From: JACRDV01 sp024860865 [NCBI: Methanobacteriota archaeon] | GTDB lineage: Archaea > JACRDV01 | DNA: 9,673 bases | Reading direction: 5' to 3' | Assembly (NCBI GenBank): GCA_024860865.1 | Contig: JACRDV010000101.1 | Span: forward strand, 1 to 9,673 | Shown here: piece after piece, positions 759-9,673 of the stretch | Numbering within the stretch: position 1 is the stretch's first letter | Layout of the letters: every line of letters begins with the position of its first letter | Position numbers and translations under genes: made by a program | The notes under the pieces: model-generated | What the model was told of the DNA's origin: nothing | Seen by the model: the letters and a program-made list of their open reading frames with translations, nothing else | Database searches by the model: none

Positions 759-974
759 CTACACTACAGCCGGGGTTTCTTTTTTCACTGCCAATGCTTG
801 TCCTATCCAGTCTACGAGGTGTCGCTTAGCGTCAAGTATCTCTATCTCAACAGGAGCTTTACTTTCATCGAAATGAACGATTATCCCTCCACCGATGTCT
901 TCACCATAAGCCGGCTTATTATCCTTTATTTTAATCAGCAACACATCTACTTCACCATCATAGTAGGATTTCAT
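759..974 (-). CDS. DUF2283 family protein, predicted antitoxin (pair 1)
   Basis: This 71-residue protein opens MKSYYDGEVDVLLIKI and later has GIIVHFDE and EIEILDAKR, the three blocks of the DUF2283 family (Y-D-x-E-x-D at the start, a middle strand, and E-I-L-D-A near residue 45). The start is set at ATG 974 because GGGGAG at 986-981 sits 6 nt before it. A longer frame beginning at 1007 would add 11 unconserved residues. The gene follows the DUF4258 gene and overlaps it by 17 nt (958-974), so the two are translated from one message. DUF2283 proteins are predicted antitoxin partners of DUF4258 proteins in archaea and bacteria; the biochemical role is not established. It ends in AVV, as does its paralogue at 5731-5937. 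Confidence 0.8.
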   Translation of the reverse strand: MKSYYDGEVDVLLIKIKDNKPAYGEDIGGGIIVHFDESKAPVEIEILDAKRHLVDWIGQALAVKKETPAVV

Positions 975-1215
975 GTTTTTCTCCCCAATATCTTTTTTTC
1001 TCGGCACGATACGCAGTGATTACGATAATGTCTTTCCCACGTTGTTCATATACTACTCGAAGTATATAATCGTTAAGACGTTTATGAGCGATCAACCTTC
1101 TCCCATAGCCATCTACGATCTCCTCAGGGTTCTCCACAGTCTTCTTAACTAACTCTTCGGTTAAGTTGTATGTTTCGATTCGTTTCTTGGCGTGCTTTGG
1201 TATGATAATTTCCAT
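958..1215 (-). CDS. DUF4258 family protein, predicted toxin (pair 1)
   Basis: The 85-residue product starts MEIIIPKHAKKRIETY and has YGRRLIAHKRL in the middle and IIVITAYRAEKKRYW near the end. The histidine at position 8 followed by K-x-R-x-E-x-Y, and the final hydrophobic strand followed by Y-R-x-x-K-x-R-Y, fit DUF4258, a small family related in layout to RelE/BrnT-like toxins. The start is supported by GGAGA at 1225-1221, 5 nt before ATG 1215. A TATA-like TTTAAAATA (plus-strand 1240-1254) lies about 33 bp upstream. The downstream partner is the overlapping DUF2283 gene. I infer a toxin-antitoxin module; toxicity and target (RNA cleavage is a guess from the fold) are not shown by sequence alone. 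Both genes look intact although the surroundings are decayed. Confidence 0.75.
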   Translation of the reverse strand: MEIIIPKHAKKRIETYNLTEELVKKTVENPEEIVDGYGRRLIAHKRLNDYILRVVYEQRGKDIIVITAYRAEKKRYWGEKHEILL

Positions 1216-3053: not shown

Positions 3054-5405
3054 TTATTTAAATTCAAAAAGAGTTTTTTGTTTTTTAACCATTTTGAACT
3101 GGTCTTCAGTTACGCCAAAGCTCTCCAGTATCCTATGGGCAGGAGGTATAATTTGATTGTTAACATAATAATCAGTATCAATATCCTCTAGTTTTGCCAT
3201 TGAGTAAGGCTTCGCTCTGTCAGTAAGCCTGCCAGCTCCTTTTGTAATAACAAATCCGATTTTATCCCCCGCATCAAGTCTGCCACCAGCTTTTAACAAT
3301 ATTTTAGCAGCAGAAACATGTGGAGCAGCTATCTCATATTCTTCTGGACTTTTTGTCAGGGTTTTCCATATAATTAGCTCCTCATATGGAATTTGATTAG
3401 CTTGCATTTTTTGAATTATTTCTTGAACATAAACAACCGCTTTTTCTGGCGTTTTTTCCTTTAAAATTATCTCAAAAACTTTCTCTTGAACCTCTCTAGC
3501 TATTTCTGCCCAGTCGCCTCGAACAACTTCAAAACCAGTTATATCGATTCTCCCATCCTTTAACAATCCAGCATATTTTTTCTTCGCTTCAGTAAAGAAA
3601 ATTCTTTCATAAATATCTTTTAACTCAATTTCCAGTTCAAGCTTTTCTCTAACAGTTTCAATTAATTTTTCAACTTTAGGTTTCTCGTACTTAATGAAAA
3701 GTGAATCGGTATCAGCATAAATTATTTGAAGGCCAAGTTTTTTTGCAACTTCTATAGTTTTTGTTATAGTCTCTCGACCCCACGCTGCAGTTGCTTCTCC
3801 AACTTGTTTAAAGTAAAATTTTGCTCCAAGCCATGCATTATAGCCGTAGACTGCGTTTGTAGTCGTTTTGATAGCTTGCTGGCGCGCATCAAGGATTCTA
3901 TATTCAATACTTTTTGGGTCGAGTTTTTTAAGTTGTGTTTTAATTTTTCTACGAACTTTGATTAAATCTGATAGAACTCTCTTATAAAAACCATCAGGAA
4001 CTTTTCTAAATTTATATCCAACTTCAGGGGCGATATTTACTTCAGTTGATTTAACCCCAACATCTTCTGATACGAAAGTATCAGGAGAAATATTTTTTTG
4101 AATCATTAATGCAGGGTACATTGAGGAAAAATCAACGACAGCGACATTTTCATGTATTCCAGGTTTAGGAGCAAGAACGATCGCCCCCCTATATGGAAAA
4201 TATTGTTTCTCAAATCTGCTAGGGATTAGCTCTCCTTCTAAGGATGCTTGCCTAATTAAATACCATTCAACTCTAAACCCCATGGCAGCAGCTCCGACAT
4301 GATCAAGAGGCAATCCAACTACATTTGAAAGTTGAATTGCAAATGGTAATAATTTTTCAGAAACTTCAATTATAGTTTTGACTTCATTTTTAGATTGTTC
4401 TAACAATTTTTCTCTAAGTTTTTTATCATCCCAAAGCTCAGGAATTTTTGTTTCATCAACTTTTAATGGCTTAATTTTTGTTCCTAAAAATTCAGCTATA
4501 TTTTCAAGAGTTTTTACCTTAATATCTACAATATCTTCTGCGAAATCATAAAGATCAATATTAGCTCTGCCTGCGATTGAAACGTGTCCATACATGCTTG
4601 TATGAGGTTCGCCTGGCCTACCAACATCTAGCTTAATTTTTAAATTTTTAGCCCGTTGTCCCAAATAAAGCCAATCAAAAATATTTGATTCATATCCAAC
4701 AATACAATCTGGGTCGAATTCTTGAACGAATTTTGCAAACCCTTGGATTGCTTTTTTATCATTATAATCTGTTGCAATGAATTGCTTTTCAAGGCCATTA
4801 TTAGTTGCAGTTGAGATTGTAATTACTGGATCGGCAGCAGTTTTTGTAGATAAACCGCGCTTGCTGTAGCACTTTATATCAAAGGCCAGGACTTTAAGTC
4901 GTGGAATTTTCGCCTCTTCAATTGGTTTAGGAGTTTTTTTAACCTGATAAATAGCATCGACTTTATAGTTTTTTGATTTTATTTCTTCAACTTCAGTCTG
5001 ATGCCAACCACAGGGAGTCAATTGATTATCAATTAAATATCTGAGCGGGTATCTGACATCATACTCATAACATTCTTGAATTTCTTCTAATTTTGAAATT
5101 ATTTTTTGCAATTTGATTGCTTGGCCAGGATCTCTAAATGTAATTTTTAAAACTTTTACAGGTTTACCGAAGAGCTTTCGGTCTGCAAGCTCTATATTTG
5201 TAATGTTTGTTGAAAGTGCTAGAATTTTAGAAGTTAAACTTTTTATGTCAACTTTTTCTTTCGGTAAAACATAAAAATATGGTAAAAAAGTATCATCAAT
5301 AACTAAAACTTTTTTATTATTTGAGTCAATACACCAGAGTAAAATTTGTGGTTTTTCTTTTTTAACCTCATGAGCTATATCAAGGATCCAAAAATTAAGG
5401 TTCAT
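3054..5405 (-). CDS. polB: Family B DNA polymerase with altered proofreading motifs
   Basis: This is a full-length (783 aa) archaeal B-family replicative-type polymerase. The polymerase site is intact: motif A DFSSMYP (425-431), motif B K513-TTTN-AVYG (to 521), motif C YADTDS (563-568) and KKKY (608-611). The C-terminus QKTLFEFK (776-783) is a PCNA-interacting (PIP) box with Q776, L779 and F782. The N-terminal FYVLP and RYLID regions match the archaeal uracil-sensing domain. The exonuclease domain departs from consensus: Exo I reads D176-I-K178 where DIE is expected, Exo II reads YESNIFD (238-244) where YNxxNFD is usual, and the Exo III Tyr and Asp positions read Q337 and E341. Proofreading is therefore probably weak or absent. 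GTGAT lies 4 nt before ATG 5405, and TTTAAG about 34 bp upstream may be the TATA box. It is divergent from TA pair 2. Whether it is the main replicase cannot be told here. Confidence 0.93.
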   Translation of the reverse strand: MNLNFWILDIAHEVKKEKPQILLWCIDSNNKKVLVIDDTFLPYFYVLPKEKVDIKSLTSKILALSTNITNIELADRKLFGKPVKVLKITFRDPGQAIKLQKIISKLEEIQECYEYDVRYPLRYLIDNQLTPCGWHQTEVEEIKSKNYKVDAIYQVKKTPKPIEEAKIPRLKVLAFDIKCYSKRGLSTKTAADPVITISTATNNGLEKQFIATDYNDKKAIQGFAKFVQEFDPDCIVGYESNIFDWLYLGQRAKNLKIKLDVGRPGEPHTSMYGHVSIAGRANIDLYDFAEDIVDIKVKTLENIAEFLGTKIKPLKVDETKIPELWDDKKLREKLLEQSKNEVKTIIEVSEKLLPFAIQLSNVVGLPLDHVGAAAMGFRVEWYLIRQASLEGELIPSRFEKQYFPYRGAIVLAPKPGIHENVAVVDFSSMYPALMIQKNISPDTFVSEDVGVKSTEVNIAPEVGYKFRKVPDGFYKRVLSDLIKVRRKIKTQLKKLDPKSIEYRILDARQQAIKTTTNAVYGYNAWLGAKFYFKQVGEATAAWGRETITKTIEVAKKLGLQIIYADTDSLFIKYEKPKVEKLIETVREKLELEIELKDIYERIFFTEAKKKYAGLLKDGRIDITGFEVVRGDWAEIAREVQEKVFEIILKEKTPEKAVVYVQEIIQKMQANQIPYEELIIWKTLTKSPEEYEIAAPHVSAAKILLKAGGRLDAGDKIGFVITKGAGRLTDRAKPYSMAKLEDIDTDYYVNNQIIPPAHRILESFGVTEDQFKMVKKQKTLFEFK

Positions 5406-5501: not shown

Positions 5502-5747
5502 ATGAAAATTATTTATAATAAGCATGCTGAGGTAAAAATTAAAGAAAGAGAGATTGATAAAGGTATAGTTGAAAGTACCATTGTAAGCCCAGACCGAGGT
5601 GTTATTGGTTTTCATGGAAGAACTATTTTTGAGAAGAAAATTAACGAAAAACATAAAATTAGAGTAATATGTGAAATAAAAGGTGAAAATATAAAAGTAA
5701 TATCGTGTTATATTACTAAAGTTGGTAGATATGAAAATCGATTATGA
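5502..5747 (+). CDS. DUF4258 family protein, predicted toxin (pair 2)
   Basis: The 81-residue product begins MKIIYNKHAEVKIKER, has FHGRTIFEKKI in the middle and IKVISCYITKVGRYE at the end. The histidine at position 8, the H/Y-G-R-x-(hydrophobic)-x-x-K-(K/R) block and the closing strand plus R-Y match the protein encoded at 958-1215, though overall identity is low, so the two are old paralogues or separate acquisitions and not a recent duplication. A weak GGTTGGG lies before ATG 5502. The downstream DUF2283 gene overlaps by 17 nt. The predicted role is the toxin of a type II-like module; no activity can be proved from sequence. Regulation through the palindrome at 5465-5478 is inferred. Confidence 0.75.
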   Translation: MKIIYNKHAEVKIKEREIDKGIVESTIVSPDRGVIGFHGRTIFEKKINEKHKIRVICEIKGENIKVISCYITKVGRYENRL

Positions 5748-5937
5748 TAAAGAATATGATATTATCTATCTAAGATTTAGCAAAAAAAAGTATTCTTATA
5801 GTGAAGAAAAGGATAATATTATCGTAGATTATGATAAAGAAGGTAAAGTTATTGCAATTGAGATTTTGGACGCTTCTAGAATATTGAAACATCCAATAGC
5901 AGAAATAATGAGAATAAAAGAAGCTGCAGTAGTTTAG
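5731..5937 (+). CDS. DUF2283 family protein, predicted antitoxin (pair 2)
   Basis: The 68-residue product opens MKIDYDKEYDIIYLRF, then has NIIVDYDKEGK and IEILDASRIL, the DUF2283 blocks in order, and ends KEAAVV. ATG 5731 is preferred over the in-frame TTG at 5722 because it gives the family's normal MKxxYD start and the same geometry as pair 1. GGTAG just before it is only a weak ribosome site, so translation is probably coupled to the upstream gene. The 17-nt overlap (5731-5747) places the DUF4258 stop TGA inside the codons for Y5-D6. A T-rich stretch (about 5946-5960) follows the stop and may end transcription. Very high Lys/Asp/Glu/Tyr content reflects AT-rich codon use. Predicted partner and inhibitor of the DUF4258 protein. 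Confidence 0.8.
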   Translation: MKIDYDKEYDIIYLRFSKKKYSYSEEKDNIIVDYDKEGKVIAIEILDASRILKHPIAEIMRIKEAAVV

Positions 5938-8900: not shown

Positions 8901-9673
8901 TTGGAGTCAGTTTTGGTTACAGGTACAAAATTTAAACTCTTAGAAAAATTGATTGATGTAATTCCAAATGGAAGCTGCATTTCTTTAATCGGATTGCCAG
9001 GTTCCGGCAAAACGGTTTTTTGTGAGAACTTATTGGGTGAAAGTTTGAAGCAAGAAATTAGTTCCTTATACATTATTACCCAATCACCACCAGATACTGT
9101 TAGAAAATATTTGCAATTTACCGTACCTAACATCGACATGCTTGAACAAAACAAAAAATTTGCCATTGTAGACGCATATTCATGGTTGTTAAATAAGAAA
9201 GTTGAAAAATATGCCGTAGATGACCTAAGTGATCTTTCACATTTTAATGCTACAGTATCCAAAGCAACTAATGAACTCGGTGAAAATAAATTTGTTATTT
9301 TCGATTCGCCATCTGCTCTCACTCAATATAACAGCGAAGAAGTTGTTATAAAATTTTTGCGCAGCTTTTTTGCTAAAGAGAGGGCTTTGAATGATATATG
9401 TATTTGTCCGCTAGAATGGGGAGTCCACTCAGATTCTTTTTACAATATTGTTAACTCTAATGCTGATGGTATATTCGGGATAAAGATCGAACAAATAGAG
9501 GACAAGTTAGAAAGGCTATTTCGTGTATTTAGTTTTCGAACAGTTGCTCATAACACTAAGTGGGTCAATTTCAAAATAGTTAATCCACGCAAGGTTATCA
9601 TGGAGAAATATATATCAACTGCAATTGAACTAAGACTTAGTGAAGCAAGAGAAAAATTAAACAATATAGAAAA
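8901..9673 (+). CDS. KaiC/RAD55-like P-loop ATPase, C-terminus beyond window
   Basis: The frame is open for 257 codons to the window edge. It opens VTGTKFKLLEKLIDVIPNGS, the usual lead-in of archaeal single-domain KaiC-like proteins, followed by Walker A GLPGSGKT (31-38) and Walker B KFVIFD (130-135). The segment after the second strand reads YIITQSPPDTVRKY (57-70); RecA/KaiC ATPases usually carry catalytic glutamate here (T-x-E-E/S-P), and this copy has Gln. ATP binding is likely; hydrolysis may be weak. Archaeal proteins of this group are thought to act in signalling, motility control or repair, often next to a sensor or response-regulator gene, which would lie past 9673. The last residues (about 238-257) form a charged helix. 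Start TTG is supported by AGAGG at 8889-8893. It follows a non-coding, rearranged stretch, so it probably has its own promoter. Confidence 0.8.
   Translation, partial: MESVLVTGTKFKLLEKLIDVIPNGSCISLIGLPGSGKTVFCENLLGESLKQEISSLYIITQSPPDTVRKYLQFTVPNIDMLEQNKKFAIVDAYSWLLNKKVEKYAVDDLSDLSHFNATVSKATNELGENKFVIFDSPSALTQYNSEEVVIKFLRSFFAKERALNDICICPLEWGVHSDSFYNIVNSNADGIFGIKIEQIEDKLERLFRVFSFRTVAHNTKWVNFKIVNPRKVIMEKYISTAIELRLSEAREKLNNIE

What the first reader, a model, noticed from the sequence alone, without database searches (positions are those of the whole stretch)
3054..5405. PolB with intact synthesis site but degenerate proofreading motifs
Seen: Exo I is D176-I-K178 (codon AAG, plus-strand 4872-4874) where D-I-E binds the catalytic metals in B-family enzymes; Exo II has E239 where Asn is usual; Exo III has Q337 and E341 where Tyr and Asp are usual. 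Polymerase motifs A, B, C, KKKY and the PIP box are conserved. Known: changing the Exo I Asp/Glu pair abolishes proofreading in Pfu-type enzymes. Inference: this is a processive, PCNA-tethered but error-prone or specialised polymerase. Three motifs altered together argue against a single sequencing error.
Basis: partly seen in the sequence, partly recalled or inferred. Interest (0 to 1): 0.62.

Follow-up and report, generated by a model that had tools for sequence, protein, structure and literature searches.

The report
Archaeal DNA polymerase without proofreading site
This archaeal DNA-copying enzyme keeps its synthesis site but has lost key parts of its error-correcting site, and the same has happened in a large group of related enzymes, mostly in archaea that also have a second, unrelated replication polymerase.

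Summary
The 783-residue PolB at 3054-5405(-) has K178, E239, Q337 and E341 where relatives have E, N, Y and D; D176, D244 and the polymerase catalytic residues are kept. It is a PolB3-type enzyme near TACK/Asgard ones; the nearest found is about 54-55% identical. It is not a one-off: of 191 fetched relatives (176 distinct) 72 (68) lack at least one of the four exonuclease carboxylates, including 30 of 30 Bathyarchaeota-labelled loci; all keep the polymerase residues. In the careful tree the window protein sits with Sigyn-/Jordarchaeia (89/89), apart from the large altered clade; one shared loss with that clade is not rejected (p 0.27), one loss for all altered rows is. Altered PolB3 goes with PolD: DP2 in 33 of 36 altered against 4 of 75 intact rows, but too few independent contrasts exist to test the link. 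The own genome has PolD, a second PolB with intact motifs, and no Y-family match. Best reading: an accessory polymerase without proofreading in a PolD cell, probably for gap filling or repair. 'Error-prone' is untested.

The parts
3054..5405 (-). PolB3-type DNA polymerase, 783 aa, ATG start
   Evidence: AlphaFold2 mean pLDDT 87.1, pTM 0.81; Foldseek best hit 5mdn_A TM 0.90/0.92
5016..5405 (-). N-terminal domain, residues 1-130
   Evidence: alignment to 5mdn_A, model; limits are those chosen
4371..4904 (-). 3'-5' exonuclease domain, residues 168-345; fold kept in the model, site altered
4872..4880 (-). Exo I D176-I-K178 (E to K)
4674..4691 (-). Exo II E239...D244 (N to E; Asp kept)
4383..4397 (-). 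Exo III Q337xxxE341 (Y to Q, D to E)
3096..4310 (-). polymerase domain, residues 366-770
   Evidence: limits chosen
4113..4133 (-). Motif A D425FSSMYP with steric-gate Tyr430
   Evidence: Y430 in 191 of 191 relatives
3840..3893 (-). Motif B, residues 505-522 with K513
3705..3719 (-). Motif C YAD565TD567
3573..3584 (-). KKKY, residues 608-611
3057..3080 (-). PIP-like tail QKTLFEFK, residues 776-783
   Evidence: residues 774-783 have pLDDT under 50 in the model

Best explanation
The gene encodes a PolB3-type enzyme, close to those of TACK and Asgard archaea, whose polymerase is intact and whose proofreading site is inactivated, while the exonuclease domain stays as a structural module (shown by sequence and model; loss of activity is inferred). 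It works beside PolD and a second PolB with intact motifs. The inferred role is an accessory polymerase, held on PCNA through its C-terminal PIP-like tail, that does short synthesis: gap filling and strand-displacing synthesis in Okazaki-fragment maturation or repair. Without 3'-5' excision it would idle less and displace more. PolD would carry bulk, proofread synthesis.
For: Motif changes in a gapless ORF. Polymerase catalytic residues kept in it and in 191 of 191 relatives. 72 of 191 relatives (68 of 176 distinct) have the site altered, with a recurrent S-I-G-D-F-N pattern in Bathyarchaeota-labelled loci, so loss is tolerated and stably inherited. The exonuclease domain of altered enzymes is still under purifying selection: exo dN/dS 0.04-0.29 in 10 of 13 close altered pairs (3 saturated), 0.03-0.23 in 13 of 17 intact pairs (4 saturated). 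Own genome: DP1 and DP2 side by side, two PolBs and no third, the other with intact motifs, no Y-family match. DP2 found with 33 of 36 altered and 4 of 75 intact PolB3 rows. In the PolD archaeon T. kodakarensis, PolB is dispensable, gives strong strand displacement and Okazaki maturation where PolD gives little, and a D141A/E143A PolB was easily installed in cells (PMC13136892, passages).
Against: No activity was measured. D176 and D244 remain and D341E is conservative, so residual exonuclease cannot be excluded. The PolD link is mostly one clade: 4 independent pairs on starred branches, 6 on all, not significant. Three altered rows lack a DP2 match (L066, L100, L106). Exo-domain dN/dS of altered pairs is about twice that of intact pairs by median (0.11 against 0.06), so constraint is relaxed. 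10 of 94 highly conserved polymerase columns also differ in the window protein. In altered relatives the Gln-type PIP motif is rare (3 of 71 against 76 of 119 intact), so PCNA tethering may not be part of a common role. In T. kodakarensis exonuclease-deficient PolB that also had a changed steric gate was not tolerated (same paper). That exonuclease loss favours strand displacement is recalled from other polymerases, not tested.
Confidence: 0.55

Rival explanations
1. Translesion polymerase or extender, as eukaryotic Pol zeta or archaeal PolB2 work: without excision it can extend from lesions or mismatches and stands in for a missing Y-family enzyme.
For: No Y-family match in the own genome. 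In the phylum sample 25 of 36 altered PolB3 rows come from genomes without a Y-family match over the cut-off (two of these, G085 and G101, have matches below it). PolB2 (Dpo2) lacks exonuclease and extends past lesions (PMC8764526, abstract and passages).
Against: 11 of 36 altered rows are from genomes with a Y-family enzyme, against 3 of 75 intact rows, the opposite of simple replacement. Polymerase motifs are canonical, unlike PolB2. No damage-response gene recognised among the ten window proteins scanned. The own genome is 92% complete, so absence is not sure.
Confidence: 0.25
2. Proofreading is weakened, not lost: D176, D244 and E341 still bind one metal and excision is slow; or proofreading is supplied in trans by PolD DP1 or another nuclease.
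For: Two Asp kept and D341E conservative; Jordarchaeia relatives (L204/L207) show only N239D and D341E. DP1 is present with its phosphoesterase motifs.
Against: E178K puts a positive charge where intact relatives have a metal-binding carboxylate; Y337 is lost too. In the related altered clade both Exo I carboxylates are usually gone (position 176 is S in 42 of 59, position 178 I in 37 of 59).
Confidence: 0.15
3. Decaying gene, sequencing error, or a foreign contig wrongly binned.
For: Only genome of its phylum held, no close relative, the window is the whole contig; in 1.2 Mb of about 2.2 Mb of G417, a distant relative, the one PolB found is a counterpart of the second PolB (46%; 33% to the window protein). 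GC of the contig (0.346) and of polB (0.335) is at the low side of the genome.
Against: Uninterrupted 783 codons; 84 of 94 highly conserved polymerase columns kept. Contig tetranucleotide r 0.914 lies within 0.841-0.961 of 19 other own contigs; polB alone 0.748 against 0.754 (sd 0.065) for 68 pieces of equal length; nine loci of other archaea give 0.14-0.72. Window HflX is far closest to G417 (55%, next 43%, of 39 genomes), and own DP2, on another contig, is also among the better matches there (57% over 655 residues, 14th by score of 149 genomes); shorter DP2 pieces reach 60% in G396 and G376, so this kinship argument is weak.
Confidence: 0.07

Closest known systems
Archaeal PolB3 (P. calidifontis Pol 5mdn; KOD/Pfu Pol)
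   Same: Domain order, polymerase motifs, fold (TM 0.90/0.92 to 5mdn), PIP-like tail; 703.8 bits to 5mdn
   Different: Exo I, II and III each altered
Archaeal PolB2 (Dpo2)
   Same: Exonuclease motifs not conserved; accessory role likely
   Different: PolB2 also has a changed motif C with one conserved Asp (PMC7544198 section 15); here both Asp are present
Eukaryotic Pol alpha and Pol zeta
   Same: B family with an inactivated exonuclease domain beside proofreading polymerases (PMC7544198 passages)
   Different: No Cys-rich C-terminal domain here: the protein ends in a PIP-like tail
Engineered exonuclease-minus PolB, D141A/E143A
   Same: Exo I carboxylate pair hit (PMC13136892 passages)
   Different: Natural, different residues, three motifs altered

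Membership tests
Archaeal PolB3 | Groups with PolB3 sequences in a tree | tested here: met
   Lies inside the Thermoproteota/Asgard PolB3 set and apart from the outgroup PolBs; no row of the trees is a named reference PolB3, the label comes from best solved hit 5mdn, called PolB3 in PMC7544198
Archaeal PolB3 | Motifs A, B, C with D425, K513, D565, D567 | tested here: met
Archaeal PolB3 | Exo I-III intact (usual; clade membership does not require it) | tested here: not met
Archaeal PolB3 | DNA synthesis and excision activity | not testable with these tools
   needs protein
Archaeal PolB2 | Motif C with one Asp only | tested here: not met
   both Asp present
Pol alpha/zeta-type | Inactivated exonuclease site | tested here: inconclusive
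   by motif yes; activity not measured
Pol alpha/zeta-type | C-terminal zinc-binding domain | tested here: not met
   tail without Cys, ends QKTLFEFK

The most novel reading that the evidence does not exclude
Archaea repeatedly disarmed PolB3 proofreading where PolD carries bulk replication, in at least two and perhaps three separate lineages, so that a eukaryote-like division of labour between proofreading and non-proofreading replication polymerases arose independently. The window protein would be a lineage caught part way, and K178 may take the place of a metal ion and hold the dead site together.
Probability: 0.35. Interest if true: 0.75.

Novelty: new variant of a known kind. Interest (0 to 1): 0.6.

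Why it matters
PolB3 is treated as a proofreading replicase or repair enzyme. A large set of archaeal PolB3s, including all 30 Bathyarchaeota-labelled loci fetched here, seems to lack that proofreading. What PolB does in cells that have PolD is an open question, and natural exonuclease-minus enzymes give a direct handle on it. They could also serve as ready-made exo-minus polymerases.

Tried and rejected
A phylogeny-aware test of PolD against exonuclease state was too weak. Decay of the whole exonuclease domain: mild for the window protein (residual -0.028; 10 of 97 intact rows as low), clearer for the altered clade (-0.058 against intact rows). Y-family replacement as the cause is not supported by counts. 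A single origin of all altered rows is rejected (p-AU 7e-39); window protein plus the large altered clade is not (p-AU 0.27). Rfam and tRNA scans of the window gave no hit; repeats were short two-copy or imperfect inverted ones, not followed. Rows dropped: 22 more distant PolBs before the trees, 21 of which keep the four carboxylates and the intein-bearing L011 likewise by eye; 33 rows at 93% identity or more to a kept row. Of the PolB3 rows (list cut short), 30 came as loci and 80 more were asked for; with L005 that is 111. 15 of these 111 are the same proteins as named loci, so 191 rows are 176 distinct ones.

Full report
What is there. The minus strand of 3054-5405 codes for a 783-residue B-family DNA polymerase. 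In 97 non-redundant relatives chosen for having all four exonuclease carboxylates, N239 is found in 96 and Y337 in 97. The window protein departs at E178, N239, Y337 and D341. Of columns at least 95% conserved in those 97, it differs in 3 of 17 in the N-terminal domain, 6 of 37 in the exonuclease domain and 10 of 94 in the polymerase domain. D425, K513, D565, D567 and the steric-gate Tyr430 are intact.

Fold and family. The best solved relative is P. calidifontis Pol 5mdn (703.8 bits). AlphaFold2 gives mean pLDDT 87.1 and pTM 0.81; Foldseek puts 5mdn first (TM 0.90/0.92). So the exonuclease domain is still folded in the model.

Not a one-off. From a sample of 300 genomes of the phylum of G025 I took 111 PolB3 rows, and from a named scan 80 more. 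In each set 36 rows have at least one of the four carboxylates changed, so 72 of 191; without 15 proteins present in both sets it is 68 of 176. All keep the polymerase residues. All 30 Bathyarchaeota-labelled loci are altered, mostly D to S, E to I, N to G and D to N. The other six altered named loci are L153 (uncultured archaeon), L159, L179 and L196 (Thermoproteota), and the Jordarchaeia L204 and L207, altered only by D341E and N239D. Sigynarchaeota L164 keeps the carboxylates but has D at 239. Baldrarchaeota L146 and L166 are intact. Both sets were chosen by closeness to the window protein, so the fractions are not prevalences. That the unnamed phylum is Thermoproteota is inferred from records shared with the named set.

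Tree. With the exonuclease domain left out, a careful tree of 48 rows puts the window protein with L164, L204 and L207 (89/89), 18 altered Thermoproteota/Bathyarchaeota rows in one clade (98/98), and L063 and L100 in a separate altered pair. Quick trees of the polymerase domain alone place it as sister to 34 altered rows (support 84, no Asgard rows in the set) or in an unresolved group with L164, L204 and 59 altered rows (support 83; the 59 have 96). One clade of the window protein plus the large altered clade is not rejected (p-AU 0.27); one clade of all altered rows is (p-AU 7e-39). So the altered state arose at least twice, perhaps three times; whether the window protein shares its loss with the large clade is open.

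Genome. The own genome (1.54 Mb in 160 contigs, 92.45% complete, 0.73% contamination) has two PolBs and DP1 and DP2 next to each other; DP1 shows D-x-H, GDxVDG, GNHD and HxH (motifs recalled). No Y-family match was found. Own DP2 scores best in G418, G024 and G001 (52-54%, 149 genomes). Window HflX is 55% to G417, next 43% (39 chosen genomes). The contig's composition fits the genome. The PolB of the finding is thus probably an extra enzyme beside a vertically inherited PolB; gain by lateral transfer is inferred.

PolD. In the phylum sample DP2 was found with 33 of 36 altered and 4 of 75 intact PolB3 rows. In 15 genomes behind named loci it was found in 7 of 7 altered and 2 of 8 intact; five of these 15 PolBs are also in the phylum sample, which leaves 6 of 6 altered and 1 of 4 intact as new. 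The altered rows are mostly one clade, and independent pairs are too few to test the link. Y-family enzymes are commoner with altered PolB3 (11 of 36) than with intact (3 of 75).

Constraint. In close pairs, exonuclease-domain dN/dS of altered enzymes is 0.04-0.29 (10 of 13 pairs; 3 saturated) and of intact ones 0.03-0.23 (13 of 17; 4 saturated; one pair, L007/L008, is an outgroup pair). Medians are about 0.11 and 0.06. The domain is kept, with some relaxation. The Gln-type PIP motif is in 76 of 119 intact and 3 of 71 altered full-length rows, or 65 of 108 and 2 of 67 distinct ones; in the last 14 residues a looser hydrophobic-xx-aromatic pattern is in 118 of 119 and 62 of 71. The window protein keeps the full motif.

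Function. In T. kodakarensis, a PolD archaeon, PolB is dispensable, displaces strands and matures Okazaki fragments far better than PolD, and tolerates D141A/E143A, though not together with a changed steric gate (PMC13136892, passages). That makes gap filling and fragment maturation the likeliest niche for a PolB without proofreading. Translesion extension, as by PolB2 (PMC8764526, passages), is the main rival.

Novelty. Makarova 2014 (PMC4104785, passages and section 5 part 1 of 2) and Kazlauskas 2020 (PMC7544198, passages and section 15) describe PolB2 as the group with lost exonuclease motifs; the parts I saw do not say so of PolB3. Searches of the held open library listed no paper whose title or abstract start is on exonuclease-less PolB3 (listings only, 20 of 41 and 20 of 34 papers shown). 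Supplements and most subscription journals were not seen.

Noticed in passing
759-1215 (-) and 5502-5937 (+): Two DUF4258/DUF2283 gene pairs, a toxin-antitoxin-like arrangement (inference), lie on both sides of polB; the second starts 96 bases past the polB start on the other strand, and its DUF4258 match is below the curated cut-off.
   Followed up: no
8901-9671 (+): KaiC-like ATPase running off the contig end.
   Followed up: no
L066 (G070), L100 (G274), L106 (G121): Altered PolB3 in genomes without a DP2 match; G070 is 98% complete, G274 and G121 76 and 77%.
   Followed up: no
C-terminal tails of altered PolB3 rows, such as L037, L172, L187: The PIP-box Gln is missing in most altered PolB3s (present in 3 of 71, against 76 of 119 intact), often with a T-R-x-L-T-D-F-F tail instead; PCNA contact may have changed with exonuclease loss.
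   Followed up: partly
L063 (G304) and L100 (G274): A separate pair of altered PolB3s with Exo I nearly intact but the Exo II Asp and Exo III lost.
   Followed up: partly
1216-2221: About 1 kb in which the only listed ORF of 60 aa or more is one of 63 aa.
   Followed up: no
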